Below are positions 5,540-50,203 of a stretch of 64,000 bases of DNA, one piece after another. The position numbers and the translations under genes were made by a program. The notes below the pieces were generated by a model that saw only the letters and a list, made by a program, of their open reading frames with translations, was not told where the DNA came from and made no database searches. The number at the start of each line of letters is the position of its first letter. Within the stretch, counting starts at the first letter, position 1. Origin of the DNA: Protula sp. h YS-2021 (taxonomy: Eukaryota; Annelida; Polychaeta; Sabellida; Serpulidae); contig OX457024.1 of the NCBI GenBank assembly GCA_949752745.1, forward strand, positions 55,597,946 to 55,661,945, read 5' to 3'.

Positions 5540-5545
5540 GTTGTG
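5540..5545. repeat. target-site duplication GTTGTG, left
   Basis: This 6-bp copy immediately precedes the AGTAG terminus of the palindromic element and matches 14929-14934. Six base pairs is the duplication size known for Polintons. Confidence 0.85.
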
Positions 5546-5830
5546 AGTAGAATGAAAATGCCGTTTCTACGCCAGGAAGTGACGTCATAATGACGTTATA
5601 GTCGACGTAACCATGACAACAAAGTGATGACCTCCCCCATCCCCCCCTCCCCAGGCGGCAGCCGGGACAGACCCTATAGTAAAAATGTGAGGACCTCCCC
5701 CCAACACCACCCTAGGACATACTATGTACGACCCCAAACCCCAAGGGGGCAGTCGGGACAGACCCTATGGTGAAAAAGTGAGGACCTCCCCCCCCCCCCC
5801 CCCCCCCCCCCAGGATCGTGATATGGCTAA
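5546..5830 (+). repeat. left terminal inverted repeat of the palindromic Polinton
   Basis: Starts AGTAGAATGAAAATGCC, contains TGACGTCA near 5580, then C-rich blocks (including a ~30-nt C run near 5788-5811) and repeats of GACAGACCCTAT with GGCGGCAGCCGGG. It matches 14530-14928 in inverse, with fewer copies of the internal block. Confidence 0.8.
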
Positions 5831-6230
5831 CTTCAAGAGTGTATAACATTCGTTATACTTGACCGATTTGTATGAAAATTTCACTGCTTGATTCAGTTTT
5901 ATGTAAAGTTTTGTTATAAAGTAGTCATGGGCTATTTGCGCATGTGGTTGTATGCATATTTTAACTTAAAAAGTGAGATAACTTTCGACATAGTTAACCG
6001 ATTTTCATGATAATTTCACCATTTCATTCAGTTGTATGTAAAGTTTACAGCGGTCATGTGTTATTTCGCGGATGAATACCATGTTGGCGTATGCATACAC
6101 ATATCCACAAATTCTGCTGAGTCAACAATTTTAGCAATTTTTGAACAAGTTTGAGCAAGTTACACACCATTTTTTTATTACATCGAAGTGGTATAAATGC
6201 ATGAGTGCGGAGAGAAAAAAACTATTCACA
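5831..6230 (+). promoter_or_regulatory. subterminal region and gene A promoter, left arm
   Basis: Contains two diverged ~130-bp modules (CGATTT...ATGAAAATTTCAC...TTCAGTT...ATGTAAAGTTT), also found near 54960-55260 of the full-length element. The promoter module follows: ATTCTGCTGAGTCAACAATTT near 6110, ACACACCAT near 6161, and TATAAA at 6192-6197, which is 39 nt before ATG 6231. Confidence 0.6.
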
Positions 6231-6398
6231 ATGTCAACGTTACTTCTTCACCGATGTGCAGAGACCATGGATGACGTCTTCAATGTGAACTATGTTGACC
6301 ATGTGTTTTCAAAGCTTCCTGGTTTTGAATCGGATTGGATTTTGCAAGTGAAGAATTTGCATCAGCATTGGGAAGCTGTTACGTTTACGTTTACGTGA
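6231..6398 (+). pseudogene. gene A fragment, left arm (3' part deleted)
   Basis: Matches the first ~50 codons of gene A of the full-length element (40755-41189), including FNVNYVDHVFSKLPGF-like sequence. After the codons for HWEAV it runs into a short duplicated filler (ACGTTTACG) and then joins gene 2 about 480 bp further on. The deletion removed the rest of gene A and the start of gene 2. Confidence 0.8.
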
Positions 6399-6858
6399 CA
6401 TTGGCTTCAAACTGTACTTAATACAAACGAAGTGGCTTGAAGTCATTTCATACTTGGATATGCGTTATGTGAGTTTTGTGTGCACATCACTGTTTGAAGG
6501 GAAAGAATACACGCATCACATCAACATGAATGATGCTGAATGGGAGACACTGCTTCAGGAGATGGATAACATCAACTCAGCCTTGTTACCATGTACGGAA
6601 TGTCATGACAAGAAAACTCCTTTCAAGCTGCAAAAGGATGATCGGATCAAGGTGTCAAAACTGTCCAAGAAAAGACTGGCTGAAGTTCAGTTGGAGAATA
6701 TAAACGTACAAAATCAACTTGGACTTACCTGTGACTATTGTGGTGCTTACGGATATATGGAGGATTATCATTGCCACTGCCACAAGTTGTGTGAACCAAA
6801 CAACTTCTGCAGCAAGTGTGGAGTAAGGTCTGTGAAGCAAAGTAGAAGTGACAAGTGA
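6392..6858 (+). pseudogene. PC4-like zinc protein fragment, left arm (5' truncated)
   Basis: Begins inside the gene at the codons for the RDIGFKLYL region and runs to the normal C-terminus. It keeps the second PC4-like module (YVSF, then INMNDAEWETLLQE) and the Cys/His-rich tail (CDYCGAYGYM, CHCHKLCE, CSKCG). The N-terminal module and start codon were lost by the deletion at ~6380. It differs from the right-arm copy at several residues. Confidence 0.8.
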
Positions 6859-6862
6859 CAAG

Positions 6863-7418
6863 ATGGACACATGTTTTAAAAAGGCTTATGTTGACTTGAT
6901 GATTGCTAAACTTGCTTGCTGTGGAACTCCAGACTATCAACTTTATCATTTAGACGCTTTTTGGGGTGTTGTACATCATAGTCTTGATGTGATTGAACTG
7001 CATTCAAGATTTCTTGGAGAATGTCATAAAATTGGAATAGAAGATCCTGACTTTGACTTTGATTCTGCATTCTATGCGGCTCGCACTGATGTGGAAGTAT
7101 ATTTTACCGTGGTTGATTATTTGAGAGATTGCTGTCGACTAGAAGAGGAAACGGAGCAGCTTTGTCAGGTAACTTTTTGAACAACTTTAAAGATATAGCA
7201 ACAACCTTTTAACATCTTTGTGACAACAGCGAATTCAATCTTATGCGAGTTGTTTCAAAGAGTCATTTAAAGACATAACAATGTTTTTCTTACTAGCAAA
7301 TTTAATCTTATGTCAGTGGTTTCAACGTGAACAAAGAAAGATCATGATAGAAGAGGTTGCAGTCATCTTAAAAGATATTTTATTACAGGAAGAAACCGAC
7401 ATGCCAGCGTCAGAATAA
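6863..7418 (+). CDS. gene B, left arm: small spliced Polinton gene
   Basis: Exon 1 runs from ATG 6863 to CAG 7168. A 148-bp intron (7169-7316) starts GTAACT and has branch-like TTACTAGC and acceptor GTCAG. Exon 2 (7317-7415) joins in phase 0 and ends at TAA 7416-7418. The total is 135 residues. The copy at 41951 has the same splice phase but a 98-bp intron, and the exons stay in frame in both, which supports real splicing. The protein is mostly helical and acidic at the end of exon 1. It is paralogous to genes A and C by the pattern CFK..Y.D...., then W, then F..EC, then FD...A...AR.D. Function unknown. Confidence 0.65.
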
Positions 7419-7436
7419 ACAAAAAGAAACAAAGTC

Positions 7437-7870
7437 ATGGAGAATCTTGTATTATTTAGCGGTCACAAGGATGTTCTTTCGAACATGTTTCCAACACGAC
7501 TTGAAAAGTATGGACATACATTGAAGCTTTGTATCAATATGAGAAAGCAGTTTTCCATCGCCGCCAAGATATTGCTTCAGCTATTGTTTCATGTAGAAAT
7601 GGATATGAAGCGAAACGTATCGTTAAAGTTATAAAGCCATGTTCTTTATGGCATACAGTGAAGAGAAGTAAAATGCATGATGTTTTACATGTCAAATTGA
7701 ATCAGTGTGTATTGTTTCGCAAAAAGTTGATAGAATGTAAAGACAAAACTTTAGTTGAAGCAACGTATGATCATTGGTGGGGAGCAGGTGTGAAACATTT
7801 GTCATTTCCTTCATATCCTGGTCAGAATATCATGGGAAAGTTGTTAGAAATTTTGTGTGAGGGGGTATAA
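7437..7870 (+). pseudogene. NADAR (YbiA-like) domain gene, left arm, one frame change
   Basis: Two overlapping frames together cover a whole NADAR domain. The first (from ATG 7437) holds the start with FSG and LSNMFP. The second, from about 7524, holds EALYQYEKA, then DHWWGAG, then GQNIMGKLL at the end. These are the family's conserved Glu helix, Asp/Trp-Gly loop and Asn-Gly segment. NADAR enzymes act on ADP-ribose linkages; some remove ADP-ribose from DNA guanine. The frame change near 7520 is shared by all three copies in this window, so it is ancestral or, less likely, programmed. Confidence 0.7.
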
Positions 7871-7938
7871 AAGTGGTGAGACTTTTCATATACTCACCGT
7901 GGCGTGCAGACGTGCAGGAGTATATGAACATGTAAAGG

Positions 7939-8220
7939 ATGGATGTAGAAACATGTTTCAAGAACAAGTTTGTGGACTACATGATAAGTGAACTGGCACG
8001 TTTTGGAACTGTTGAACAACAACTGGAACATATCCACATCTATTGGGTACTTGCTCATTCCATGCTGAACTTGACAAACTTGCGTAAGGATTTCATCAAA
8101 GAGTGTGGTGATATTGCCGGAGCTGAGGAGTTTGATGTGGAAGCAGCATATCACTTTGCTCGATTTGATCCAAGGCTGTTTGATGAAGTGAGAGAGTGGT
8201 TAATGTATATTGCAGTATAA
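7939..8220 (+). CDS. gene C, left arm: small paralogue of genes A and B
   Basis: Intact frame of 93 residues, identical in translation to the right-arm copy at 11652-11933. It shares with gene B the order CFKN, then YMIS.LA, then a W in a helix, then FIKECG, then FDVEAAYHFARFD. No catalytic motif or membrane segment is evident. Its stop overlaps the next start (TAATG). This gene is missing from the full-length element, where only scraps remain near 42900-43080. Function unknown. Confidence 0.6.
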   Translation: MDVETCFKNKFVDYMISELARFGTVEQQLEHIHIYWVLAHSMLNLTNLRKDFIKECGDIAGAEEFDVEAAYHFARFDPRLFDEVREWLMYIAV

Positions 8221-8552
8221 TGGCAGACATTACACTGAGACAATATATTGTGTAAAAAGCCTATTGTGAAGAAATGTTATTAGCTGTAAAAAAGTTTGCA
8301 TGTTTAGTATGTCCTACTTGTCAACATGAAGAGTGTCAAGAACATACTTGTCATTTTGCTTGTGTCTATGCATATTGGAATGAAGCTAAATATTAAATTC
8401 ATTTAGATAAAGTGTTAGAGAATGCAAATAAACGTTGTGAGAAATATGGTGTAGATGTTATTACATTAGATGAACTAAGTAGTTGGTTAGTGTTCATTGA
8501 AGACCAATGGTCTCCAGTTATTCACACTATTGTATCAATACTTGATTTGTAA
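8220..8552 (+). pseudogene. gene D, left arm (two in-frame stops)
   Basis: Homologous to intact gene D at 43094-43426. In-frame TAA codons interrupt it after the codons for QYIV (near 8253) and at AKY* (near 8393). The Cys/His cluster CPTCQHEECQEHTC is still readable. The same stops occur in the right arm. Confidence 0.8.
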
Positions 8553-8655
8553 AAACTTACTAGTTAAGTTATAAATGTATGTTAGTTAAGTTATTTTGGT
8601 TGAGTTATAAAATAAAAAGTGTTCTGTTAAGAAGTGTTTCTCATTCTGTGTTAAC

Positions 8656-9193
8656 ATGTTGACGTGGAAAGACCACTTGACCAATATTTACTTCAAACCT
8701 GGTCAACCCGGAGCATTTGCTGGTCCTTACAAACTTTATCACATCTTAAGAAAACATGATCAACCAGTCACACATTCACAAGTGAAGAAATGGCTACAGG
8801 ATTAAGATGCATTCAGTTTATTACAACCTGTAAAATACAGCTTCAAAAGACAACGTTCTATTACACGTGGCATTGATAACATGTGGGATATTGATTTGGC
8901 TGATGTGGGAAACATAGCTCCCTATAATGATGACACGCGCTTTTTACTCATTGTCATTGATGTGTTTTCCAAATATTTGTGGGTCCAGCCAATACCTAAT
9001 AAATCACATACCAGCGTCATACAAGTTTTCCAAAAGATTTTTCATGAAACACGACGAAGACCACGAACTCTAAGATCTGATAAAGGAACGGAATTTAAAA
9101 ATAGATGGGTAAAAGCATTTTTGAAGAAGGAGGGAATTCATGCTTATACCACAAAGAATGAAACCAAAGCCAACTTTGCTGAAAGTGTCATTC
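8656..9193 (+). pseudogene. Polinton integrase, left arm, truncated at the palindrome junction
   Basis: Starts at ATG 8656. An in-frame TAA near 8803 follows the codons for KWLQD. It retains the first two catalytic Asp regions (WDIDLAD and RSDKGTEF) and ends inside the segment that would carry the catalytic Glu (ANFAES). From 9193 the sequence switches to the inverted small basic gene. The C-terminal part and chromodomain are absent. Confidence 0.85.
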
Positions 9194-9199
9194 TCCAAT

Positions 9200-9469
9200 G
9201 AATCCTCCTTTTTGATTAATCAACTTCTTTTTTCTTCGAAGTGATATCTTCTTATCTGCTAGAGTACTTAGAGTATGACGTTCAGGCTTGAATTCCTTAA
9301 ACTCTTTTCAGCTTAAGGGTAAATGTCCTCGCAATATATTCAAACAAATTTAAAACAAACTCGTTAATTCCTCCTTCGTAGCTTGCTGTAGCAAGGATTT
9401 ACGTCGCTTAGGCCCACTGCGTGCGAGCAAGTGAAGAAACGGTTGGTTCGCTTGAATACGTTTAGACAT
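9200..9469 (-). pseudogene. small basic gene (copy of 45287-45613), truncated at the junction
   Basis: Minus-strand copy starting at ATG 9469 that overlaps the ATPase stop, as in the full-length element. One in-frame TAA replaces a Glu codon after the codons for SLF. The 3' end is cut at the palindrome junction right after the codons for NQKGGFIG. Confidence 0.8.
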
Positions 9470-10121
9470 CTTGACTGCGAATGGTTAAATGAGTTGGTTC
9501 TTGTTCATACACTGCTTTATCAATATATACATAATATGTATCTTTTGGTAAAATGCCTGTACGAATACGTAGTTGATCATTTGTCTTTGGTTTTAAATCA
9601 ATGAATAAATAACCATGTGGTTTGCTTGTAGCATCTTGATAGGCTTCTATAAGAAATTGAGATCTTTCAGGGTACATTTGTCGCCCTAATGTACTAATTT
9701 GTTGACTGTCTCTAGGATTTTTAAACAGAATGATATAATGTGTATTCAAACTAGTATTTCGCATTTCTTTACCATGATGGAATAAATTATGCACAATAAA
9801 GATAATGCTTAGATTCTGATGACTGCTGCCAACACTAAAGAGACGTGTCATACGCTCATCACTGTGACATTTAGTCATTAAGTCATCAATGATGAGTAAG
9901 TTTGTTTTTTTCGGGTTAAAGCGCTCTTCAATGTCATCTGGAATGCCTTGGTAAAATTCCACATTTCTCATTCCCTTATATAAAGGTTGATCTGCTGAAT
10001 AAAGCAATAAAATGGTTTTTGGAGAGGGTTTAATCAACTTTTGTTCTAGGATTTCCTTCACCAGAGACGTTTTACCACTGCCTGTAGGTCCAGAGACCAA
10101 ACATGTAAATGGATGTTTCAT
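9462..10121 (-). CDS. A32-like packaging ATPase, right arm
   Basis: Intact 219-codon frame from ATG 10121, which lies in the ATGA overlap with the integrase stop. The Walker A motif GPTGSGKTS (residues 11-19) and Walker B LLIIDD (75-80) are complete. It belongs to the FtsK/HerA-type ATPases that pump DNA into capsids in Polintons and large DNA viruses. It is about 95% identical at protein level to the copy at 44635-45294. It is single copy within the palindrome, lying in the loop. It is the only large intact gene of this element, although the element has no capsid genes. Confidence 0.88.
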   Translation of the reverse strand: MKHPFTCLVSGPTGSGKTSLVKEILEQKLIKPSPKTILLLYSADQPLYKGMRNVEFYQGIPDDIEERFNPKKTNLLIIDDLMTKCHSDERMTRLFSVGSSHQNLSIIFIVHNLFHHGKEMRNTSLNTHYIILFKNPRDSQQISTLGRQMYPERSQFLIEAYQDATSKPHGYLFIDLKPKTNDQLRIRTGILPKDTYYVYIDKAVYEQEPTHLTIRSQDV

Positions 10122-11216
10122 TTTTGAATGTCTGTTTCTTTCACCCAACTGCTAAACTTGTTTGGCCAGCCTAACCACTTGACAAATAATTCTTTCACAC
10201 CTCTTCTTTTACGTGTTTTCAAGACTTTTCCAATTCTGTAAATAGATTCAATATCTTTGGTCACTTTCTGCAGTTCTTCCTAATAGAAATGTCCATCAGT
10301 ATCTTCATCCAAAAAGTCTTTCACACGATACAAATGTATTCCTTGCTTCTTACACCGATGTGTGACAATGAAGACTTCTTGCGTCCATTTGATGTGATAA
10401 TCCCGTTGAAACACATATTTGATGTGGGAAATGCGAACATGATCTCCAATTTTATATTTGTAGGGTTTTTGCTTCTTCTTCGGTTTCAATTTTAGTTTGT
10501 CTACATACACATACTTCCACACTTTTGATTCGTTGTCTTTACGAATCTCTGCAGGAGCATAGTTATCAGGAAGAGAACCATGAGCTCTATGGTTGTAATT
10601 GTACACCAAGTCTGAAAAGGATGTCTACATAAGGGTAAGTTTGATTATGTAGAAAATACCGATACATCATTCCCTTTAGAGTACGAATGACTCTTTCAGC
10701 AAAGTTGGCTTTGGTTTCATTCTTTGTGGTATGAATACCCTCCTTCTTCAAAAATGCTTTTACCCATCTATTTTTAAATTCCGTTCCTTTATCAGATCTT
10801 AGAGTTCGTGGTCTTCGTCGTGTTTCATGAAAAATCTTTTGGAAAACTTGTATGACGCTGGTATGTGATTTATTAGGTATTGGCTGGACCCACAAATATT
10901 TGGAAAACACATCAATGACAATGAGTAAAAAGCGCGTGTCATCATTATAGGGAGCTATGTTTCCCACATCAGCCAAATCAATATCCCACATGTTATCAAT
11001 GCCACGTGTAATAGAACGTTGTCTTTTGAAGCTGTATTTTACAGGTTGTAATAAACTGAATGCATCTTAATCCTGTAGCCATTTCTTCACTTGTGAATGT
11101 TTGACTGGTTGATCATGTTTTCTTAAGATGTGATAAAGTTTGTAAGGACCAGCAAATGCTCCGGGTTGACCAGGTTTGAAGTAAATATTGGTCAAGTGGT
11201 CTTTCCACGTCAACAT
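10119..11216 (-). pseudogene. Polinton integrase, right arm, full length but broken
   Basis: Runs from ATG 11216 to TGA near 10119. Lesions include the TAA after KWLQD shared with the left arm, loss of two codons (the AY of HAYTTKN), a frame change near 10610 and a stop near 10279. The catalytic regions WDIDLAD, RSDKGTEF and NFAERVIR are all readable. The chromodomain region lies at about 10120-10260. Confidence 0.85.
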
Positions 11217-11319
11217 GTTAACACAGAATGAGAAACACTTCTTAACAGAACACTTTTTATTTTATAACTCAACCAACATAACTTAACTAACATACATTTA
11301 TAACTTAACTAGTAAGTTT

Positions 11320-11652
11320 TTACAAAGCAAGTATTGATACAATAGTGTGAATAACTGGAGACCATTGGTCTTCAATGAACACTAACCAACTACTTAGTTC
11401 ATCTAATGTAATAACATCTACACCATATTTCTCACAACGTTTATTTGCATTCTCTAACACTTTATCTAAATGAATTTAATATTTAGCTTCATTCCAATAT
11501 GCATAGACACAAGCAAAATGACAAGTATGTTCTTGACACTCTTCATGTTGACAAGTAGGACATACTAAACATGCAAACTTTTTTACAGCTAATAACATTT
11601 CTTCACAATAGGCTTTTTACACAATATATTGTCTCAGTGTAATGTCTGCCAT
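11320..11652 (-). pseudogene. gene D, right arm (same stops as left arm)
   Basis: Mirror of 8220-8552 with the same two in-frame TAA codons and one clear extra difference near its 3' end. Shared stops mean that the mutation predates the inverted duplication, or that the arms were homogenised later. Confidence 0.8.
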
Positions 11653-11933
11653 TATACTGCAATATACATTAACCACTCTCTCACTTCATCAAACAGCCTT
11701 GGATCAAATCGAGCAAAGTGATATGCTGCTTCCACATCAAACTCCTCAGCTCCGGCAATATCACCACACTCTTTGATGAAATCCTTACGCAAGTTTGTCA
11801 AGTTCAGCATGGAATGAGCAAGTACCCAATAGATGTGGATATGTTCCAGTTGTTGTTCAACAGTTCCAAAACGTGCCAGTTCACTTATCATGTAGTCCAC
11901 AAACTTGTTCTTGAAACATGTTTCTACATCCAT
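11652..11933 (-). CDS. gene C, right arm
   Basis: 93-residue frame identical in translation to 7939-8220. See that entry for motifs and paralogy. Function unknown. Confidence 0.6.
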   Translation of the reverse strand: MDVETCFKNKFVDYMISELARFGTVEQQLEHIHIYWVLAHSMLNLTNLRKDFIKECGDIAGAEEFDVEAAYHFARFDPRLFDEVREWLMYIAV

Positions 11934-12001
11934 CCTTTACATGTTCATATACTCCTGCACGTCTGCACGCCACGGTGAGTATATGAAAAGTCTCACCACT
12001 T

Positions 12002-12435
12002 TTATACCCCCTCACACAAAATTTCTAACAACTTTCCCATGATATTCTGACCAGGATATGAAGGAAATGACAAATGTTTCACACCTGCTCCCCACCAATG
12101 ATCATACGTTGCTTCAACTAAAGTTTTGTCTTTACATTCTATCAACTTTTTGCGAAACAATACACACTGATTCAATTTGACATGTAAAACATCATGCATT
12201 TTACTTCTCTTCACTGTATGCCATAAAGAACATGGCTTTATAACTTTAACGATACGTTTCGCTTCATATCCATTTCTACATGAAACAATAGCTGAAGCAA
12301 TATCTTGGCGGCGATGGAAAACTGCTTTCTCATATTGATACAAAGCTTCAATGTATGTCCATACTTTTCAAGTCGTGTTGGAAACATGTTCGAAAGAACA
12401 TCCTTGTGACCGCTAAATAATACAAGATTCTCCAT
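12002..12435 (-). pseudogene. NADAR domain gene, right arm
   Basis: Both reading-frame segments are identical in translation to those at 7437-7870, with the same frame change near 12350. Conserved positions EALYQYEKA, DHWWGAG and GQNIMGK are present. Confidence 0.7.
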
Positions 12436-12453
12436 GACTTTGTTTCTTTTTGT

Positions 12454-13009
12454 TTATTCTGACGCTGGCATGTCGGTTTCTTCCTGTAATAAAATATCTT
12501 TTAAGATGACTGCAACCTCTTCTATCATGATCTTTCTTTGTTCACGTTGAAACCACTGACATAAGATTAAATTTGCTAGTAAGAAAAACATTGTTATGTC
12601 TTTAAATGACTCTTTGAAACAACTCGCATAAGATTGAATTCGCTGTTGTCACAAAGATGTTAAAAGGTTGTTGCTATATCTTTAAAGTTGTTCAAAAAGT
12701 TACCTGACAAAGCTGCTCCGTTTCCTCTTCTAGTCGACAGCAATCTCTCAAATAATCAACCACGGTAAAATATACTTCCACATCAGTGCGAGCCGCATAG
12801 AATGCAGAATCAAAGTCAAAGTCAGGATCTTCTATTCCAATTTTATGACATTCTCCAAGAAATCTTGAATGCAGTTCAATCACATCAAGACTATGATGTA
12901 CAACACCCCAAAAAGCGTCTAAATGATAAAGTTGATAGTCTGGAGTTCCACAGCAAGCAAGTTTAGCAATTATCAAGTCAACATAAGCCTTTTTAAAACA
13001 TGTGTCCAT
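12454..13009 (-). CDS. gene B, right arm, spliced
   Basis: Exon 1 is 13009-12704, intron 12703-12556 (148 bp) and exon 2 12555-12457, with stop 12456-12454. It differs from the left-arm copy by one residue in exon 1 (Ile for Met). The splice signals are the same. Confidence 0.65.
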
Positions 13010-13013
13010 CTTG

Positions 13014-13637
13014 TCACTTGTCACTTCTACTTTGCTTCACAGACCTTACTCCACACTTGCTGCAGAAGTTGTTTGGTTCACACAACTTGTGGCAGTGGCA
13101 ATGATAATCCTCCATATATCCGTAAGCACCACAATAGTCACAGGTAAGTCCAAGTTGATTTTGTACGTTTATATTCTCCAACTGAAATTCAGCCAGTCTT
13201 TTCTTGGACAGTTTTGACACCTTGATCCGATCATCCTTTTGCAGCTTTATAGGAGTTTTCTTGTCATGACACTCCGTACATGGTAACAAGGCTGAGTTGA
13301 TGTTATATATCTCCTGAAGCAGTGTCTCCCATTCAGCATCATTCATGTTGATGTGATGCGTGTATTCTTTCAATTCAAACAGTGATGTGCGCACAAAACT
13401 CACATAACGCATATCCAAGTATGAAATGACTTCAAGCCACTTCGTTTGTGTTAAGTACAGTTTGAAGCCAATGTCACGTAAATTTTTCAAGCTCTGACAT
13501 ACAGTCTTCCACAAAGATGGTGATAAAGCACACCATCTCTCTCCACGTGTGATGCGTAGAAATGACCTAAATTCTCCATGCTCCACAGTAATGGTTAAGT
13601 TGGCACTAATTTTAAAGCTGCTTGTCTTTTTCTCCAT
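13014..13637 (-). CDS. PC4-like zinc protein, right arm
   Basis: 207 codons from ATG 13637. Two beta-rich modules each end in a W/L helix (LWKTVCQSL and AEWETLLQE). They are followed by a Cys/His-rich tail (CDYCGAYG, CHCHKLCE, CSKCG) that could bind two zinc ions. The frame is complete, unlike the left-arm copy. Its TATA box (TATAAAAGG at about 13681-13673) contains the stop codon of gene A. Likely a nucleic-acid-binding accessory protein; see 41270-41926. Confidence 0.6.
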   Translation of the reverse strand: MEKKTSSFKISANLTITVEHGEFRSFLRITRGERWCALSPSLWKTVCQSLKNLRDIGFKLYLTQTKWLEVISYLDMRYVSFVRTSLFELKEYTHHINMNDAEWETLLQEIYNINSALLPCTECHDKKTPIKLQKDDRIKVSKLSKKRLAEFQLENINVQNQLGLTCDYCGAYGYMEDYHCHCHKLCEPNNFCSKCGVRSVKQSRSDK

Positions 13638-13677
13638 GGCGGCACAATGTAATGATAACTTTGGCTCCTCCAACCTT

Positions 13678-14112
13678 TTATATCCAACTATCTGCTGAGT
13701 CATCAAACATCTTGCAAAGTTCTGAATTCACTTCAACTCGTCCATGGTTGAATCGAACAAGTTCTGATACACTCGTCGTCAATGGAATGTCATCATCATA
13801 ATGTAAAATGATTCTTGCAGCTACAACTAACATGAGCTCAACTGCCCAAATTGTATTCGCGTTGATAAATGTTGAATTAATGTCGTAAGTTAATGGTAAA
13901 TGTAGTTCTTCACATTCGCGTAGAAACGAGTGGATGAAACGATCTCATGGAATTGCCTTTCCAACAGCTTCCCAATGCTGATGCAAATTCTTCACTTGCA
14001 AAATCCAATCCGATTCAAAACCAAGAAGCTTTGAAAACACATAGTCAACATAGTTCACATTGAAGACGTCATCCATGGTCTCTGAACATAGGCGAAGAAG
14101 TAACGTTGACAT
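13678..14112 (-). pseudogene. gene A, right arm, one premature stop
   Basis: From ATG 14112 the frame follows gene A to the codons for GKAIP. There a TGA (near 13945) interrupts it, and it then stays readable to the natural TAA at 13680-13678. That TAA is embedded in the next gene's TATA box. Confidence 0.8.
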
Positions 14113-14529
14113 TGTGAATGGTTTTTTTTTCCTCACTCATGCATTTATACCAATTCGATGTAATAAAAAAATGGTGTGTAACTTGCTCAAACTTGTTCAA
14201 AAATTGCTAAAATTGCTGACTCAGCAGAATTTGTGGATATGTGTATACATACGCCAACATGGTATTCATCCGCGAAATAACACATGACCACTGTAAACTT
14301 TACATACAACTGAATGAAATGGTGAAATTTTCATGCAAATCGGTTAACTATGTCGAAAGTTATCTCATTTTTAAGTTACAATGGTGGCATGTTACAAATA
14401 TGCATACAGCCACATGCGCAAATAGCTCATGAGTACTTTATAAAAATACTTTACATAAAACTGAATCAAGCAGTGAAATGTTCATACAAATCGGTCAAGT
14501 ATAACTAAAGTTATACAGTTTTGAAGTTA
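14113..14529 (-). promoter_or_regulatory. subterminal modules and gene A promoter, right arm
   Basis: Mirror of 5831-6230: TTCTGCTGAGTCAGC, the ACACACCAT block, and a weak TATA position (AATTGGTATAAAT on minus near 14145). Two ~130-bp subterminal modules lie farther out. Confidence 0.55.
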
Positions 14530-14928
14530 GCCATCCTGGGGGGGGGGGAGGGGAGGATGGGTCCTCACTTTTTCACCATAGCGTCTGTCCCGACTGCCGT
14601 CAGGGAGGAGGGTCGGTACATAGTATATCCTAGGGGGAAGCCATCACTTTTTTACCATAGGGTCTGTCCCGGCTGCCGCCTGGGGGGGTCGGTACATAGT
14701 TTGTCCTAGGAGGAGGTCCTCAGTTTTTACCATAGGGTCTGTCCAGCTGCCGCCTGGGGGGGATCGGTATATAGTTTGTGCTAGGGGGAGGTCCTCACTT
14801 TTGACCATAGGGTTTGTCCGGGCTGCCGCCTGGGGGGGGGGAGGTCATCACTTTGTTGCCATGGTTACGCCGACTATGACGTCATTATGACGTCATTCCT
14901 GGCGCAGAAACGGCATTTTCATACTACT
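14530..14928 (-). repeat. right terminal inverted repeat of the palindromic Polinton
   Basis: Holds about four copies of an ~85-bp block (GACCATAGGGTCTGTCC, GCTGCCGCCTGGGGGG, TAGTTTGTCCTAGG), against about two on the left. Two TGACGTCA palindromes follow near 14877 and 14888, then the terminus ending in ACTACT at 14928. Confidence 0.8.
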
Positions 14929-14934
14929 GTTGTG
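14929..14934. repeat. target-site duplication GTTGTG, right
   Basis: Exact copy of 5540-5545, directly after the CT end of the element. Confidence 0.85.
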
Positions 14935-15069: not shown

Positions 15070-15852
15070 ATGGCTAGTCTGATTGGGCGGCTGGAACCTT
15101 TTGATGAAACCGAGGGTAGCTGAGAGTTGTACAAAGAGCGTCTGGAACAGTATTTCATCGCCAACGATGTTGCAGACGAGAAGAAGGTTGCGGTTGCACT
15201 AAGTTTGATTGGTGGTAAGACCTACGCACTTCTTCAAGGCCTTTGTTCCCCAGACAAGCCATCTACGAGCCCTGCTGCAGGAGTACCTAGTCCAAAGCCT
15301 AATGTCATTAGTCCGTTACCGACTATATTGGGGTGCTACAGAAGTTATCAAAACATTGCGAATTCGGCGATCGTTTGGCAGAACATCTACGGGAACCAGC
15401 TAGTGTGTGGAATAAGAAGTAAAAATGCACTGAAGAGGTCAGAGAATTTGAACTTCAAGAAAGCCAAGAAAAAAGCGATTGCAATGGAGATGGCGGTAAA
15501 AGATGTTTCGGAGATCCAAGGAACGACAACCAGTGTGAATCGAATGCAACAGAAGACAGGAGGTGAGTGTTTCCGCTGTGGCAGAACAGGACACGGCCAT
15601 GATGAATGTAGATTTAAAGAAGAAAAATGCCATAAGTGCGGAAGAAAAGGTCATATCAAACGCAGATGCAAGGTGAAGAAACAGAGCAAGCAGTCTGCAG
15701 ATGGTAAAGTTCAAAGAAGCCTAGGCACAAGGGTAAGAAGAAAGTTTTCAATGTTGAAGAAAATGAATCGACCACGGAAGATGAAGAAGAAAGCGAATAC
15801 GGCAGTACTTCCGGCGAAGAGCTTGGGTTTGCTGAAGTTATTTATGGCGTAA
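15070..15852 (+). pseudogene. Ty3/Gypsy gag remnant with two zinc knuckles
   Basis: The frame from ATG 15070 starts with IGRLEPFDE, then a TGA at 15121 stands where a Trp codon is expected. The next frame continues with YKERLEQYF, typical of Gypsy gag. Two CX2CX4HX4C knuckles (CFRCGRTGHGHDEC and CHKCGRKGHIKRRC) lie near 15571-15669. Part of the capsid region seems lost between about 15260 and 15430. Not functional. Confidence 0.8.
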
Positions 15853-17076
15853 ACAGCAGCAGGACAAGTAGATGCGACGCCATTACTGTTTGCCCGAAGT
15901 TGAACGGAATAGCTGTCAAAATGGAGCTTTGATCATGTCAAAAGGTGATTGTAAGAAATACCTTTGCAAAGTTCCTCTAAGAAAGACCAACGTGCTGCTG
16001 CGAACCTACACTGGTGAGTGTGTAAAACTAGAAGGTTATGTCAATGTTAAGGTCCAGTATGAAGGACAGCAGCAGCGACTAAGGTTGTATATTCTGCAGA
16101 GGAGAGGTCCACCCTTGTTTGGAAGAGATTGGTTACGTCATATTAAACTGGACTGGCGAGAGATCAAGTTCATGAAAAAGGTCAGTCAAAACAAGAAGTT
16201 GGACACGATTTTGAAAGATTATTCCGAGTGTTTCGAAGGCGATCTGGGTACACTCAAGGGAATAACGGCAAAACTCTACCTGAAGTCGGACGCAGTCCCC
16301 GTCTTCTGCAGGACACGACAAGTTCCGTTTGCTTTAAAGGAACGAGTGGATAGAGAAATGGACAATATGGTGAAAAAAGGTATCTTAACAGCGGTTGAAT
16401 GGGGTGATTGGGCAGCTCCAATTGTCCCTATCCCGAAACAAAATGGATCAGTTCGAATCTGCGGCGATTTCAAGGTTACAGTGAATCCAAAACTACAACA
16501 ATAGAAAACATGTTATCCAATTTGGCAGGGGGAGAGAAATTTTCCAAAATTGATCTACGAACGGCATATCTACAAATGGTGGCAGAAGAAGAATACCGGA
16601 AATATCTAACAATCAACACGCAGAAAGGGTTATTTCAATATAATCGTTTGGCTTACGGCATTTCCCCAGCGGCTTCTATTTGGCAACGGGCGATAGAACA
16701 AGTTTTGAAAGGAATCAAAAACGTAGAGTGCATTTTAGACGATATGATCATAACAGGACCAGATGCCGACAGCCATTTGCAGACTCTCCAAAAAGTTTTC
16801 GACCGGCTGAAAAAGTATGGATTGAAAGTCAATCCGAAGAAATGCGATTTTTTCCAAGATTCCATCGAGTTCTGCGCACATAAAGTTGACAAATATGGTA
16901 CACAAGACCGACTCGAAGATCCAGGCAGTTTTCGATGCGCCAGTACGAAAAATGTATCCAAATTTCGGAGCTGGGTAGCCCTCGTCAATTATTACCACCG
17001 TTTCCTGCCTCATCTCTCTACAGTACTCCACCCACTGCATCACCTACTTCACAAAAGACAGAAATGGACGTGTTGA
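15853..17076 (+). pseudogene. Ty3/Gypsy protease-RT remnant
   Basis: The end of protease with the linker (PLFGRDWLRHIKLDW near 16110-16150) precedes the RT start (VPFALKERVDREMDNMVKKG). After a frame change near 16500 come FSKIDLRTAYLQM, LAYGISPAASIWQR and ILDDMIITG (the YxDD box position, 16733-16759). The connection domain LVNYYHRFLPHLS follows to a stop at 17074-17076. Breaks make it non-functional. It is closest to the second copy at 25.9-27.5 kb. Confidence 0.85.
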
Positions 17077-39612: not shown

Positions 39613-40478
39613 AGTAGGTAGGAAAGGACAGTTTTGGCTCACTTGATGACGTCATACTGTCTGGACCGGAAGTGACGTCATAGGCGTAACCAAGGCGTTA
39701 CCATGGTGATAATGACGTCATCAGTCACGTGACCAATGAAAAGCCAATGAGATCAATGAAGACAATGAAGCCCCGCCCACTTTCTGTCTATCATACTGTC
39801 TGGACCGGAAGTGACGTCATAGCGTCTGGACCGGAAGTGTTGTCTGGACCGGAAGTGTTGTCTGGACCGGAAGTGCTGTCTGGACCGGAAGGTCACGATA
39901 AGCGTTAGGATAGGCGCGGCCATCCATGACGTCATAATGAGGTGATAATGAGGTGATAATGAGGTGATAATGAGGTGATAATGAGGTCATAATGAGGTCA
40001 TAATGAGGTCATAATGAGGTCATAATGAGGTCATGCTGTGTGGCGGCTTCCTAGGGTTTCAGTCGATGATCGTCGAAGTCAATGAAGTCAAGGTTTCATT
40101 TCCGAAGTCAATCGACAACAGACCCTAAAAAGTGATGACCTTCCCCCCCCCCCCCACCCCCACTCGAAATTGTGATTTTTGCATATTTATCCGTTTCAGA
40201 CGATTCTGAACATTTTTCATTTTTTGGGTCGACCTCCCCCCCCCCCCCCTCGAAATTGTGATTTTTGCATATTTATCCGTTTCAGACGATTCTGAACATT
40301 TTTCATTTTTTGGGTCGACCGACCCCCCCCCCCCTCGAAATTGTGATTTTTGCATATTTATCCGTTTCAGACGATTCTGAACATTTTTCATTTTTTGGGT
40401 CGACCGACCCCCCCCCCCCTCCCCCTCGAAATTGTGATTTTTGCATATTTATCCGTTTCAGACGATTCTGAACATTTT

Positions 40479-40509
<31 letters not shown>

Positions 40510-40511
40510 GG
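39613..40511 (+). repeat. left terminal inverted repeat of the full-length Polinton
   Basis: Outer part (39613-39900): five exact TGACGTCA (39647, 39673, 39713, 39812, 39927), five ACCGGAAGTG (39665, 39804, 39830, 39848, 39866), CACGTGAC (39726), two CCAAT and one CCCCGCCC. Middle (39935-40035): nine 11-bp units. Inner (40150-40511): four ~85-bp units ending GGGTCGACC with C tracts, then a T29 run. The right repeat (55981-56756) has three inner units. Confidence 0.9.
39935..40035 (+). repeat. 11-bp tandem repeat ATAATGAGGTG/C
   Basis: Four units with AGGTGA are followed by five with AGGTCA (39984, 39995, 40006, 40017, 40028). Each half-site is 5 bp from the next. The mirror in the right terminal repeat has four TGACCT and three TCACCT. 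Confidence 0.9.
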
Positions 40512-40639
40512 TCGACCATATACACAAGTAAAATTCTGCTGAGTCAGCAATTTTAACAATTTTGAGCAAGTTTGATAAGTTACACACCATATTTTGATTA
40601 CATGGAAGTAGCATAAAAGCATGAGTGAAACATATATGT

Positions 40640-40735
40640 GATACATTCTGCTGAGTCAACAATTTTGAACGAGTATTGAATAAGTTTGAACAAGTTACAC
40701 ACCATATACCATCAAAGTTTTATAAAAGGAAGAGT
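40640..40735 (+). promoter_or_regulatory. gene A promoter with conserved upstream module
   Basis: GTGATACATTCTGCTGAGTC (40639-40658), ACACACCAT, then TATAAAAGGAAGAGTGA with the TATA at 40721-40728, 34 nt before ATG 40755. The same blocks occur upstream of the polymerase on minus (about 54765-54708). A related copy (ATTCTGCTGAGTCAGCAATT) lies at 40533-40620. Confidence 0.7.
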
Positions 40736-40754
40736 GACGAGAAAATACTTCACA

Positions 40755-41189
40755 ATGTCGGCATTACTTCTTGACAGATGTATGACTATGGATGACGTCT
40801 TCAAAGTGAACTATATTGACTATGTGTTTTCAAAGCTTCCTGCTTTTGAATCGGATTGGATGCTGCAAGTGAAGAATTTGCATTTGCATTGGGAAGCTGT
40901 GGGAAAGGCTATTCCAAGAGATCGTTTCATCCGCTCGTTTCTACATGAATGTGAAGAACTGCATTTACTATCAACTTACAACATTGATTTAGCATTTATC
41001 AACGCGAATACAATTTGGGCAACTGACCTCATGTTAGTTGTAGCTACTAGAATTATTCTACATTATGATGATGATGTTCCAAATAATGTATCAGACCTTG
41101 TTCGGTTCAACCATGGACGAGTTGAAGTGAATTCAAAAGTTTGCAAGTTCTTTGAAAAGAAAGCTGACTCAGCAGATAGTTGGGTATAA
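40755..41189 (+). CDS. gene A: lineage-specific Polinton protein, 144 aa
   Basis: Start ATG 40755 is chosen because it is conserved in both arms of the palindromic element and sits just behind the TATA box. The protein looks helical and has no known domain. It shares with genes B and C the order FK..Y.DY...KL, then HWEA, then FLHECEEL, then a DLAF.NA..-like segment, so it belongs to a small paralogous family. Its stop TAA (41187-41189) is inside the TATA box of the next gene. Leftmost gene of the element; role unknown, perhaps an early accessory function given its own promoter. Confidence 0.65.
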   Translation: MSALLLDRCMTMDDVFKVNYIDYVFSKLPAFESDWMLQVKNLHLHWEAVGKAIPRDRFIRSFLHECEELHLLSTYNIDLAFINANTIWATDLMLVVATRIILHYDDDVPNNVSDLVRFNHGRVEVNSKVCKFFEKKADSADSWV

Positions 41190-41194
41190 AAGGG
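41185..41194 (+). promoter_or_regulatory. TATA box of the PC4-like zinc gene, containing gene A's stop codon
   Basis: TATAAAAGGG with CAGCAGATAGTTGGG upstream and GAGTGAACTCAGCAGAGTGG downstream. The TAA of gene A is part of the box. The same overlap exists in the right arm of the palindromic element (13680). Confidence 0.75.
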
Positions 41195-41269
41195 AGTGAA
41201 CTCAGCAGAGTGGAGTCATTTCTCAGCAGACAGTTGGAGGGAGTGGATCATCAATACATTGTGGCAGTC

Positions 41270-41926
41270 ATGGATAACAAGACAAGCAACGCAGCAGCGC
41301 AGCGCAGCAGCAGCAGCAGCTTTAAAATTAGTGCTAACTTAACCATTACTGTGGAGCATGGAGAATATGGGCCATTTCTACGCATCACACGTGGAGAGAG
41401 ATGGTGTGCTTATTCACCATCTTTGTGGAAGATTGTGTGCCAGAGCTTGAAAAATTTACGCGACATTGGCTTCAAACTATACTTAACGCAAACGAAGTGG
41501 CTTGAAGTCATTTCATACTTGGATATGCGCTATGTGAGTTTTGTGTGCACGTCACGGTTTGAAGGGAAAGAATACACACATCACATCAACATGAATGATG
41601 GTGAATGGGAGACACTGCTTCAGGAGATGGACAACATCAACTCAGCCCTATCACCATGTGAGGAATGTCATGACAAGAAAACGATCATCAAGCTGCAAAA
41701 GGATGGTCGGATGAAGGTGTCAAAGCTATCCAAGAAAAGGCTGGCTGAAGTTCAGTTGGAGAACATGAACGTGCAAAATCAACTTGGACTTACCTGCGAC
41801 TATTGCGGTGCTTGTGGATATATGGAGGATTATCAGTGCCACTGCCACAAGTATAATTGCAAGTTGTGTGAACCAAACAACTTCTGCGGCAATTGTGGAG
41901 TACTTAAAGTCAGTGAAGCAAAGTAA
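41270..41926 (+). CDS. PC4-like protein with C-terminal zinc cluster, 218 aa
   Basis: ATG 41270 is followed by a Ser-rich stretch encoded by GCAGC repeats. Residues ~20-60 and ~70-135 form two beta-rich modules, each closed by a W/L helix (LWKIVCQSL; GEWETLLQEM). The second (FKLYL...YVSF...INMND.EW..LL) closely parallels the right-arm protein at 49534-49905. The tail has about ten Cys plus His (CDYCGACGYM, CHCHKYNCKLCE, CGNCG), consistent with two zinc sites. PC4/p15 proteins bind single-stranded DNA and act in transcription or replication; that role is inferred here. It could also be a transcription regulator of the element. Confidence 0.55.
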   Translation: MDNKTSNAAAQRSSSSSFKISANLTITVEHGEYGPFLRITRGERWCAYSPSLWKIVCQSLKNLRDIGFKLYLTQTKWLEVISYLDMRYVSFVCTSRFEGKEYTHHINMNDGEWETLLQEMDNINSALSPCEECHDKKTIIKLQKDGRMKVSKLSKKRLAEVQLENMNVQNQLGLTCDYCGACGYMEDYQCHCHKYNCKLCEPNNFCGNCGVLKVSEAK

Positions 41927-41950
41927 AAGCCCACAAGACACTGAAACAAG

Positions 41951-42453
41951 ATGGACGCATGTTTTAAAAATGCTTATATTGACTTGATGATTGCTAAACT
42001 TGCTTGCTGTGGCACTCCAGACTATCAACTTTATCATTTGGATGCTTTTTGGGATGTTGTACATCATAGTCTTGATGTGATTGAACTGCATTCAAGATTT
42101 CTTGGAGAATGTCATAAAATTGGAATAGAAGAAGATCCTGACTTTGACTTTGATTCTGCACTTTATTCTGCTCGTACTGATGTAGAAGTATATTTCACCG
42201 TAGTGGATCATTTGAGAGATTGTTGTAAAGAAGAAGAGGAAACCGAGCAGCTTTATCAGGTAACTTTAAAGATATAAAAACCTTTTAATCATCTTTGTAA
42301 CAACATAGTGAATTGATAACAATGTTTTTCTTACTAACAAATTTAGTTTTATGTGAGTGGTTTCAACGTAAACCAAGAAAGAACATGATAGAAGAGGCAG
42401 CAAATATATTAAAAGATATTTTATTACAGGAAGAAACCGACATGTCAGAATAA
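41951..42453 (+). CDS. gene B: spliced small Polinton gene, 134 aa
   Basis: Exon 1 41951-42259, intron 42260-42357 (98 bp, GTAACT...TTACTAAC...GTGAG), exon 2 42358-42450, stop TAA 42451-42453. Unspliced, exon 1 would read only five codons past the donor. Splicing keeps the frame in phase 0 both here and in the diverged 148-bp introns at 7169-7316 and 12703-12556. Exon 2 encodes an amphipathic tail (WFQRKPRK, then MIEEAANILKDILLQEE). Paralogous to genes A and C. No enzymatic motif. The acceptor AG here is GAG instead of CAG, so splicing may be weaker. Confidence 0.65.
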
Positions 42454-42474
42454 AACAGCAGAAGCAAAGTCAAC

Positions 42475-42895
42475 ATGGAGAATCTTGTACTATTCAGCGG
42501 TCATAAGGACGTTCTTTCAAACATGTTTCCAAGACGACTTGAAAAGTATGGACATGGACAAGTGAAGCTTTGTATCAATATGAGAAAGCAGTGTTTCATC
42601 ACCGTCCAGATATTGCTTCAGCCATTATGTCATCCAGAAATGGATATGAAGCAAAACGTATTGCTAAAGGGATAAAGCCATGTCCTTACCAGTGAAGAGA
42701 AGTAAAATGCAAGATGTTTTACAAGTCAAATGGAATCAGTGTGTATTGTTTCGCAACAAGTTGAAAGAATGTAAAGACAAAACTTTAGTTGAAGCAACGT
42801 ATGATCATTGGTGGGGAGCTGGTGTGAAACAAGTGTCATCTGGATATCCTGGTCAGAATATTATGGGAAAGTTGTTAGAACTGTTGTGTGAGACT
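42475..42895 (+). pseudogene. NADAR domain gene, broken by two frame changes
   Basis: The start (ENLVLFSGHKDVLSNMFP) is in one frame. EALYQYEKAVFHHR and RNGYEAKRIAK are in a second frame from 42564. DHWWGAG and GQNIMGKLLELL are in a third, from 42680. The second break comes from a 7-bp deletion relative to the copies at 7437 and 12435. The conserved NADAR residues are all present across the pieces. Between gene B and gene D. NADAR proteins hydrolyse ADP-ribose adducts, including on DNA in DarT-type systems, so the intact ancestor may have countered host ADP-ribosylation; that is inference. Confidence 0.7.
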
Positions 42896-43093
42896 TGATG
42901 TGCAGACGTGTGAACATGGAGAAGTGTGTTAAGTGAACAGCAACTGGAAAAAAATTTGCTGAATTTGACAGACTTATGCTACATTGCCGGAGCAGCATAA
43001 CTTGCTAAACCTGACAGACTTGTGCTACATTGCCGGAGCAGCATAACTTGCTAAACCTGACAGACTTGTGCTGCATTGATTCAAGACTGCATA
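42896..43093 (+). repeat. remnant of gene C replaced by a ~46-bp tandem repeat
   Basis: GCAGACGTGTGAACATGGA, CAGCAACTGGAA, GCTGAATTTGACAGACTT and ATTGCCGGAGC are scraps matching the start, middle and end of gene C at 7905-8125. The block GACAGACTTGTGCTACATTG plus CCGGAGCAGCATAACTTGCT is then repeated about two and a half times. Gene C is therefore deleted in this element. Confidence 0.7.
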
Positions 43094-43426
43094 ATGGCGG
43101 ACATGACACTGAGACAATATATTGTGCAAAAAGCTTATTGTGAAGAAATGTTATCAGCTGTAAAAAAGTTTGCCTATTTAGTCTGTCCTGCTTGTCAACA
43201 TGAAGAGTGTCAAGAACATACTTGTCATACTGCATGTGTTTATACATATTGGAATGAAGCTAAATATTACATTCATTTAGATAAAGTGTTAGAGAATGCA
43301 AATCAACGTTGTGAGAAATATGGTGTAGATGCTATTACATTAGATGAACTCAGTCATTGGTTAGTGTTCATTGAAGACCAATGGTCTCCAGTTATTCATA
43401 CCATTGTATCTATACTTGATTTGTAA
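43094..43426 (+). CDS. gene D: Cys/His-containing small Polinton protein, 110 aa
   Basis: ATG 43094 is preferred because the same ATG follows gene C directly in the palindromic element. The sequence CPACQHEECQEHTCHTAC (residues ~31-48) probably binds zinc. The rest is helical, with WNEAKYYIHLDKVLENA and WLVFIEDQW. It may be a distant fourth member of the A/B/C family (AYCEEM, YW, C...G.D.), but this is weak. Intact here, stopped in both arms of the palindrome. Function unknown. Confidence 0.6.
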   Translation: MADMTLRQYIVQKAYCEEMLSAVKKFAYLVCPACQHEECQEHTCHTACVYTYWNEAKYYIHLDKVLENANQRCEKYGVDAITLDELSHWLVFIEDQWSPVIHTIVSILDL

Positions 43427-43531
43427 AAAACTTGTTAGTTAAGTTATAAATGCATGTTAGTTAAGTGATGTTGGTTGAGTTATAAAATAAAAGCTGTTCT
43501 GTTGAGAAGGTGGTTTTCATTCGGTGTGACC
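43427..43531 (+). promoter_or_regulatory. gene D 3' end and integrase promoter
   Basis: TTAGTTAAG occurs twice (43435 and 43457), then TATAAAATAAAAGC at 43481-43494, 50 nt before integrase ATG 43532. The block can serve as TATA box for the integrase and contains AATAAA for gene D. The order is conserved near 8556-8655. Confidence 0.5.
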
Positions 43532-44638: not shown

Positions 44639-45294
44639 AGCATCCATTTACATGTTTGGTCTCTGGACCTACAGGCAGTGGCAAGACGTCTCTGGTGAAG
44701 GAAATTCTAGAACAAAAGTTGATTCAACCCTCTCCGAAAAACATTTTATGGCTCTATGCAGCAGATCAGCCTTTGTACAAGGGAATGAAAGGCGTGGAAT
44801 TTTACCAAGGCATTCCAGATGACATTGAAGAGCGTTTTAACCCGAAAAAACCAAACTTACTTATCATTGATGACTTAATGACGAAATGTCATAGTGATGA
44901 GCGTATGACACGTCTCTTTAGTGTTGGCAGCAGTCATCAAAATCTAAGCATTATCTTTATTGTGCATAATTTATTCCATCATGGGAAAGAGATGCGAAAT
45001 ATTAGTTTGAATACACATTATATCATTCTGTTTAAAAATCCGAGAGACAGTCAACAAATTAGTACATTGGCGCGGCAAATGTATCCTGGAAGATCTCAAT
45101 TTCTCATAGAAGCCTATCAAGATGCTACTAGCAAACCTCATGGTTATTTATTCATTGATTTAAAACCAAAGACAAATGATCAACTACGTATTCGTACAGG
45201 CATTTTACCAAAAGATACACATTATGTATATATTGATAAAGCAGTGTATGAACAAGAACCATCTCATTTGACCATTCGCAGTCAAGATGTCTAA
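44635..45294 (+). CDS. A32-like genome packaging ATPase, 219 aa
   Basis: FtsK/HerA-superfamily ATPase that drives DNA into the capsid. Walker A GPTGSGKTS at residues 11-19, Walker B LLIIDD at 75-80, and a later IIFIVHNLFHHG segment matching the sensor region of the family. ATG 44635 shares ATGA with the integrase stop. The usual length for Polinton ATPases is 200-250 residues. Frame intact; the palindromic element has a second intact copy. Confidence 0.93.
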   Translation: MKHPFTCLVSGPTGSGKTSLVKEILEQKLIQPSPKNILWLYAADQPLYKGMKGVEFYQGIPDDIEERFNPKKPNLLIIDDLMTKCHSDERMTRLFSVGSSHQNLSIIFIVHNLFHHGKEMRNISLNTHYIILFKNPRDSQQISTLARQMYPGRSQFLIEAYQDATSKPHGYLFIDLKPKTNDQLRIRTGILPKDTHYVYIDKAVYEQEPSHLTIRSQDV

Positions 45295-45613: not shown

Positions 45614-45620
45614 ACATACG

Positions 45621-46387: not shown

Positions 46388-46395
46388 TTCCCATC

Positions 46396-47492: not shown

Positions 47493-47496
47493 AATC

Positions 47497-50149: not shown

Positions 50150-50203
50150 CTCGTTCAACAGTCAGATGAACTATGAGCTGTCTCCTTGTCTGCAAAGACG
50201 TTT

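What the first reader, a model, noticed from the sequence alone, without database searches (positions are those of the whole stretch)
5540..14934. A Polinton that appears to have integrated as a palindrome
Two inverted copies of one element end are joined at 9193, and the whole structure has proper AG...CT termini and a 6-bp duplication GTTGTG on both sides. A duplication made after insertion would not normally leave matching target duplications around both outer ends. This looks like a defective, snap-back genome produced during protein-primed replication (as in adenovirus-type defective genomes) and then inserted by an integrase supplied in trans. The junction shows at most 1 nt of homology.
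Basis: partly seen in the sequence, partly recalled or inferred. Interest (0 to 1): 0.9.

Follow-up and report, generated by a model that had tools for sequence, protein, structure and literature searches.

The report
Palindromic Polinton flanked by target duplication
A broken virus-like transposon in the genome of an unidentified organism consists of two mirror-image copies of one of its ends, and its decay pattern suggests it was already mirror-imaged when it inserted, which would be a rare fossil of the element's free DNA stage.

Summary
The structure is real. A 9,383-bp Polinton (5546-14928) has AGTAG...CTACT ends, a perfect 6-bp duplication GTTGTG, arms of 3,648 and 4,244 bp that are inverted copies of the integrase end, and a 1,491-bp single-copy loop with the packaging ATPase. 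The joint at 9193/9194 shares 1 nt and occurs once in the 863-Mb host genome.

Better evidence comes from 20 relatives and an ordinary 17-kb Polinton in the window. Normal terminal repeats end before the first integrase-end gene (12 of 12 measurable, of 20). Yet arm sequence beyond that point (15/444 differences) has diverged as much as the terminal repeats (21/470; p=0.50), and apart from private mutations the arms differ there at 1 site (next relative: 7). So the arms seem about as old as the insertion. The inner arms are nearly identical (6/2502) but share private decay, as arm-to-arm gene conversion predicts.

Most likely the palindrome formed before or during integration. Snap-back replication, joining of two broken genomes, and two-genome integration are not separated; an early post-insertion event is not excluded. 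The survey for further examples is incomplete.

The parts
5540..5545 (.). target-site duplication GTTGTG, left copy
5546..6220 (+). terminal inverted repeat of the left arm, including a minisatellite (about 5641-5815); inner edge looks of integrase-end type (by eye)
6221..6685 (+). outer unique part of left arm (start of first integrase-end gene), beyond the family's TIR; 15 of 444 sites of 6231-6685 differ from the right arm
6379..6389 (+). deletion joint with filler; about 480 bp of the right arm (13483-13962) missing here
6686..9193 (+). inner part of left arm, nearly identical to the right arm (6 substitutions in 2502 sites plus one 6-nt indel); ends inside the integrase gene
9193..9194 (.). 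inversion joint, 1-nt overlap, single occurrence in the host genome
9194..10684 (-). single-copy loop of the palindrome: rest of integrase and packaging ATPase
9462..10151 (-). packaging ATPase ORF, 229 aa (Pfam Pox_A32 and Adeno_IVa2)
   Evidence: 373 of 547 candidate homologues at E<=0.001
10587..11066 (-). integrase fragment ORF (rve); a premature stop just upstream is shared with the left arm (8803)
10685..14928 (-). right arm, 4,244 bp, integrase end of the element
12002..12367 (-). NADAR-domain ORF in the right arm; same ORF inverted at 7505-7870
14929..14934 (.). target-site duplication GTTGTG, right copy

Best explanation
A defective Polinton made of two inverted copies of the integrase end (one 5.7 kb, one 4.2 kb, joined interior to interior) came into being as extrachromosomal DNA or during the integration reaction (inferred), and was inserted by Polinton integrase acting on two integrase-end termini, leaving the 6-bp duplication (the duplication is shown, the enzyme inferred). 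It then decayed: point mutations in both arms and a 480-bp deletion in the left arm (shown), and later arm-to-arm gene conversion that made the inner 2.5 kb almost identical (inferred from shared private mutations). How the two copies were joined is not resolved: template switch (snap-back) in protein-primed replication, end joining of two broken genomes, or paired integration of the ends of two genomes followed by joining of their broken tails.
For: Arms stop exactly at both termini, inside a perfect TSD, with unrelated flanks. In 12 of 20 relatives where inverted matches between the two ends could be measured (8 gave none), the TIR ended outside the first gene in 12 of 12, 7 of them 13-36 nt before it; so left-arm sequence past about 6220 is not ordinary TIR. 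That sequence differs from the right arm at 15/444 sites, against 21/470 in the TIR (p=0.50; ratio 0.76, 95% CI 0.39-1.47; with private changes only 1.16, 0.51-2.61). In 14 of the 15 the derived state occurs in 0 of 21 relatives; leaving private states aside, left and right arm differ at 1 of 444 sites while the closest of 21 relatives differs at 7 of 434, so the arms are sisters that diverged in place. Inner arms carry 36 shared private changes in 2453 sites, against 2 left-only and 2 right-only, while the outer part has 4 shared, 3 left-only, 11 right-only in 451; with one fixed set of 8 relatives 38/2/3 in 2152 and 5/3/11 in 451, as conversion predicts. A different palindrome in this genome (L019) also has long identical tracts (824-nt run, 0 of 2000 permutations).
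Against: The age test has wide limits: duplication at 40-50% of the insertion's age fits too. In the TIR, 6 of 16 differences tested and 4 of 4 at its inner edge involve states that also occur in relatives, against 1 of 15 beyond it (10 in 389 vs 1 in 444 sites, p=0.004). Chance repeats of mutation in this variable stretch explain most of it (20-31% of random changes in the TIR and 59% at the edge would hit a known state), but a left TIR of other origin, as in the in-place model, would give the same. The sharp drop in divergence at 6685/6686 needs a further event (conversion). Right-arm changes outnumber left-arm ones (11 to 4). No second palindrome with TSDs was shown, although most family copies were not examined. 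No reads were available.
Confidence: 0.65

Rival explanations
1. Rearrangement in place, early after insertion: an ordinary Polinton inserted at GTTGTG, broke internally, one terminal repeat invaded the other, copied inward through the integrase-end genes, and the copy was end-joined at 9193/9194, deleting the polymerase end.
For: It keeps the duplications, needs only TIR homology, and a 1-nt junction is usual for end joining (the last point is general knowledge). L/R differences in the TIR include states seen in relatives more often than those beyond it (10 in 389 vs 1 in 444 sites, p=0.004). The same genome contains another palindrome with Polinton fragments whose arms run at least 2 kb outward of the gene (L019), so the host seems able to make palindromes.
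Against: Copying well after insertion predicts that sequence beyond the TIR is younger than the TIR; it is not measurably so (15/444 vs 21/470). The left TIR shows no polymerase-end signature (by eye), though power is low. Starting the copy at 6685/6686 would need a TIR covering the gene, seen in 0 of 12 relatives.
Confidence: 0.25
2. Two-genome (bimolecular) integration: the intasome paired the integrase ends of two separate element genomes, inserted both, and the host joined the two broken tails. This is a variant of the best explanation and its share is counted within it.
For: Explains two integrase ends facing out, unequal arms (4,244 and 5,735 bp from terminus to joint) and an end-joining type junction, and predicts a single-copy junction, as seen (1 place in the genome at up to 3 mismatches).
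Against: No direct evidence; it requires large losses from both tails. Snap-back explains the same anatomy.
Confidence: 0.2
3. Two Polintons inserted close together in opposite orientation, followed by deletion of everything between their inner halves.
For: Would give inverted integrase ends facing outward.
Against: Needs the two outer target duplications to match by chance (3.1e-4 for six bases). Independent copies also differ more: leaving private states aside, the closest of 21 relatives differs from the left arm at 7 of 434 sites, the right arm at 1 of 444.
Confidence: 0.03
4. Assembly or library artefact (fold-back read or collapsed haplotypes).
For: The inner arms are almost identical, as polishing errors could make them; no raw reads were available.
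Against: A fold-back read would give identical arms; these differ by 46 substitutions in 3438 aligned sites (minisatellite and deletion joint left out), a 480-bp deletion, minisatellite copy number and a 6-nt indel, and the structure sits exactly inside a TSD.
Confidence: 0.05

Closest known systems
Polinton/Maverick elements
   Same: AG...CT-type ends, 6-bp TSD, TIRs, rve-type integrase, A32-like packaging ATPase; E2 in the same window is an ordinary-sized 17,144-bp member.
   Different: Polymerase end and the region of protease and presumed capsid genes absent; both ends are the integrase end.
Snapback genomes of AAV (asymmetric SBG; PMC8235507, passages read)
   Same: Self-complementary genome of one end, symmetric or with unequal halves and a loop; the authors favour end joining, an earlier proposal was template switch.
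   Different: Parvovirus, packaged molecules; here a chromosomal insertion with a TSD.
Adenovirus defective genomes with inverted end duplications (recalled, no call)
   Same: Linear protein-primed genomes in which one end is duplicated inverted onto the other.
   Different: Adenoviruses have no integrase; not known to me as TSD-flanked insertions.
Inverted duplication in host DNA (L019 here; in print, ODIRA, PMC4689423, search listing only)
   Same: Inverted copies with a spacer and, in L019, patchy identity between arms.
   Different: In L019 the arms run at least 2 kb outward of the gene with no E1-type TIR and their outer ends were not reached; in E1 they end at the termini.

Membership tests
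Polinton/Maverick | AG...CT termini with inverted repeats | tested here: met
   AGTAGAATG / AGTAGTATG ends
Polinton/Maverick | 6-bp target-site duplication | tested here: met
   GTTGTG on both sides; in E2, GTGAAA with the site uninterrupted in two sibling tandem units
Polinton/Maverick | retroviral-type integrase | tested here: met
   rve, E=1.1e-10, but the gene is interrupted by a premature stop
Polinton/Maverick | packaging ATPase | tested here: met
   Pox_A32 9.5e-08, Adeno_IVa2 3e-07
Polinton/Maverick | protein-primed DNA polymerase B | tested here: not met
   E1 lacks the region; in E2 only a weak DNA_pol_B_2 match below cut-off (E=0.0011). E1 is therefore a defective derivative, not an autonomous member
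Polinton/Maverick | capsid proteins and adenain protease | tested here: not met
   no such match among the E1 ORFs scanned (8 of the 10 ORFs lie in E1), and the matching E2 region is absent; E2 has a Peptidase_C5 match just below cut-off, no capsid identified by Pfam
Snap-back defective genome | inverted copies of one end with a single joint and a loop | tested here: met
Snap-back defective genome | present as free or packaged replicating molecule | not testable with these tools
   needs episomal DNA
Snap-back defective genome | palindrome formed before insertion | tested here: inconclusive
   outer arms and TIR of equal divergence, wide limits

The most novel reading that the evidence does not exclude
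A Polinton replicated as free, protein-primed linear DNA, threw off a palindromic defective genome (or two genomes were paired by the integrase), and this was integrated, perhaps by trans-supplied integrase: a chromosomal fossil of a Polinton defective genome.
Probability: 0.5. Interest if true: 0.72.

Novelty: new variant of a known kind. Interest (0 to 1): 0.52.

Why it matters
Polintons are thought to replicate as protein-primed linear DNA and to be viruses, but their particles have not been observed (PMC8097293, start of abstract and passages). A palindromic copy inserted by genuine integration would be genomic evidence of aberrant extrachromosomal replication or genome pairing, and other host genomes could be scanned for TSD-flanked palindromes. 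It also cautions that target duplications alone do not date a rearrangement inside a transposon.

Tried and rejected
Rejected: the claim that matching TSDs alone prove pre-integration origin. Rejected as the sole explanation: one uniform age for the arms, which needs conversion or a second event. Disfavoured: two nested insertions and simple artefact. Tested: whether the left TIR derives from the polymerase end, by comparing L/R differences with relatives' two ends (14 integrase-end and 10 polymerase-end rows for one piece, 8 and 2 for the other): 10 of 16 differences are private (6 right, 4 left), 6 segregate without a clear end-specific pattern; low power. Tested: whether the difference between arms came from error-prone copying of the left arm; no, right-arm changes are more numerous. 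A viral-contig scan for the ATPase confirmed no relative. Literature: searches (listings) and passages of PMC8235507, PMC8097293, PMC12721341 and PMC9415595 showed me no palindromic Polinton insertion; 44 papers held both polinton and palindrom and only 20 were listed, so absence from print is not shown.

Not answered: a genome-wide count of opposite-orientation pairs of integrase ends, a search for further E1-type TIRs (asked twice), and a search for a paralogous empty site of E1. E1's flanks have no sibling in the window. Palindromes among relatives were looked for only in the fetched pieces of 20 (about 3.5-13 kb inward of the gene was not fetched): 1 of 20, L019, whose outer ends were not reached. 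In one search (40 of 3967 candidates scored) no opposite pair lay within 20 kb, but E1's own left arm and L019's second arm were not listed there, so it is a weak test. Corrections made on checking: one search's private-only ratio used 361 TIR sites; one search repeats it with 367 (1.16). One search used 6 to 19 relatives inside and 21 outside, which inflates shared private counts inside; one search repeats it with the same 8 relatives (one segment dropped) and finds the same pattern. One search also raised the TIR result told under evidence against; for it I lowered confidence from 0.66 to 0.65 and raised the in-place rival from 0.24 to 0.25.
Full report
OBSERVATION. The element (E1) runs 5546-14928, 9,383 bp, with GTTGTG at 5540-5545 and 14929-14934 and ends AGTAGAATG and, read inward from the right, AGTAGTATG. 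The left arm, 5546-9193, is an inverted copy of 14928-10685, and 9194-10684 is single copy. Thus from the right terminus the sequence runs 5,735 bp into the element and then turns back as a copy that starts 4,244 bp from the terminus. Against the colinear second Polinton, the joint shares one G. Pfam finds a packaging ATPase (9462-10151), an rve integrase fragment and a NADAR-domain ORF. The flanks are unrelated to each other.

COMPARATOR IN THE WINDOW. An ordinary-sized Polinton, E2, lies at 39613-56756 (17,144 bp, TSD GTGAAA). Integrase with chromodomain and ATPase are matched, a protease-like ORF just below cut-off, the polymerase only weakly. Its TIRs differ by 10 substitutions in 765 sites of the first 800 alignment columns. 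It sits in a tandem repeat of about 3.1 kb, and two sibling units show the site with one GTGAAA (98.6% and 95.9%), which confirms 6-bp duplication on integration for this family.

THE JUNCTION IS UNIQUE. The window lies in a held genome of 863 Mb whose organism I did not identify. A 25-base pattern across the joint, with up to 3 mismatches, occurs once, so this is not an amplified palindromic family with this joint.

RELATIVE AGES. A query of 925 bp from the first integrase-end gene gave 46 matches, with 40 of 3967 candidates scored; the best other copy is 93% identical. Pieces at both ends of 20 relatives were fetched. In 12 of 20 the two ends matched each other inversely, and in all 12 the match stopped outside the gene, in 7 of them 13-36 nt before the query start, in 5 at 122-1033 nt; 8 of 20 gave no match, so their TIRs are unknown. 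Hence E1's left arm beyond about 6220 is not ordinary TIR. Substitutions between E1's arms, minisatellite and deletion joint left out: TIR (to 6206) 21/470; 6207-6230 4/22; 6231-6685 15/444; 6686-8544 1/1859; 8545-9193 5/643. TIR and beyond-TIR outer sequence do not differ (p=0.50; ratio 0.76, 0.39-1.47; private changes only 1.16, 0.51-2.61). This is what a palindrome as old as the insertion gives, and not what late copying gives, but a duplication at half the insertion's age is not excluded.

ARE THE ARMS SISTERS? In 6231-6685, 11 of 15 changes are on the right arm and 4 on the left, and 14 of 15 derived states are absent from 21 relatives. Raw distance alone would not prove sisterhood: in 6390-6700 the closest relative differs from the left arm at 11 of 311 sites, the right arm at 10. 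With private states set aside, however, the right arm differs from the left at 1 of 444 sites, and the 21 relatives at 7 to 28. In the TIR the picture is less clean: 10 of 16 tested differences are private, and states known from relatives make up 6 of 16 there and 4 of 4 at its inner edge, against 1 of 15 beyond (10 in 389 vs 1 in 444 sites, p=0.004). The expected share from chance recurrence is 20-31% in the TIR and 59% at the edge, so recurrence covers most of it, but a left TIR of different origin is not excluded.

WHY THE INNER ARMS ARE ALIKE. A two-segment model with the step at 6685/6686 has the best BIC, and 0 of 300 permutations matched it. Counted as private changes, the outer part has 4 shared, 3 left, 11 right in 451 sites; the inner part 36 shared, 2 left, 2 right in 2453 (21 relatives outside, 6 to 19 inside). 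With the same 8 relatives throughout and one segment dropped it is 5/3/11 in 451 and 38/2/3 in 2152. The private load per arm is therefore similar (1.6% and 3.3% outer, 1.5% inner), but in the inner part it is shared. One shared change is a premature stop in integrase, absent from 13 of 13 relatives aligned there; a shared 1-nt deletion lies near 7521. Arm-to-arm conversion after decay explains this; a later re-duplication of the inner part would too, and some of the shared changes may predate the insertion. The difference between 6686-8544 and 8545-9193 (p=0.005) suggests more than one conversion, though BIC does not ask for a third segment.

A SECOND PALINDROME. One of the 20 relatives, L019, is itself palindromic: arms of at least 3.2 kb, 97.6-97.7% identical, 630-nt spacer. 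Its arms run at least 2 kb outward of the gene into sequence without a match to E1's TIR pieces, so the simplest reading is a chromosomal inverted duplication that carried flank along, unlike E1; but its outer ends were not reached and a different TIR type is not excluded. It also shows that identity between palindrome arms is patchy in this genome (longest identical run 824 of 3204 sites, 0 of 2000 permutations; E1: 1643 of 3438, 0 of 2000).

MECHANISM. Shown: structure, TSD, ends, single joint, ages within the limits given. Inferred: formation before or at integration. Not resolved: snap-back template switch, end joining of two broken genomes, or integration of two genomes' ends in one reaction with later joining of the tails. 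AAV snapback genomes offer a parallel for unequal halves with a loop (PMC8235507, passages). Protein-primed polymerase of Mavericks and their 6-bp TSDs are as stated in PMC8097293 (passages). The adenovirus parallel is recalled.

VERDICT. It is a new variant of a known kind: a Polinton-derived, TSD-flanked palindrome, with pre- or at-integration origin at about two in three.

Noticed in passing
39613-56756: A second, ordinary-sized Polinton of the same family with TSD GTGAAA, inserted in a tandem repeat of about 3.1 kb; sibling units at 59655-60018 and 62782-63197 show the site without the insertion.
   Followed up: yes
51312-54730: The polymerase region of that second Polinton seems split over two overlapping ORFs in different frames, with only a weak DNA_pol_B_2 match.
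   Followed up: no
L019:1-5501 with L051:1-1887: Another palindrome in the same genome, containing Polinton fragments and outer sequence without E1-type TIR, 97.6-97.7% identical arms with long identical tracts; outer ends not reached.
   Followed up: partly
12002-12367 and 7505-7870: A NADAR-domain ORF carried by the Polinton near its integrase end.
   Followed up: no
6836-7180 and 7936-8220: Two small ORFs in the integrase-end arm look like diverged duplicates: one relative's ORF matches both regions, the second at 35%.
   Followed up: no
1-1507: Tandem array with a unit of about 155 bp at the left edge of the window.
   Followed up: no
15124-17076: Gag-like zinc-knuckle ORF and following ORFs that look like a Gypsy-type retroelement directly beside the right flank of E1 (the Gypsy label is by eye).
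   Followed up: no
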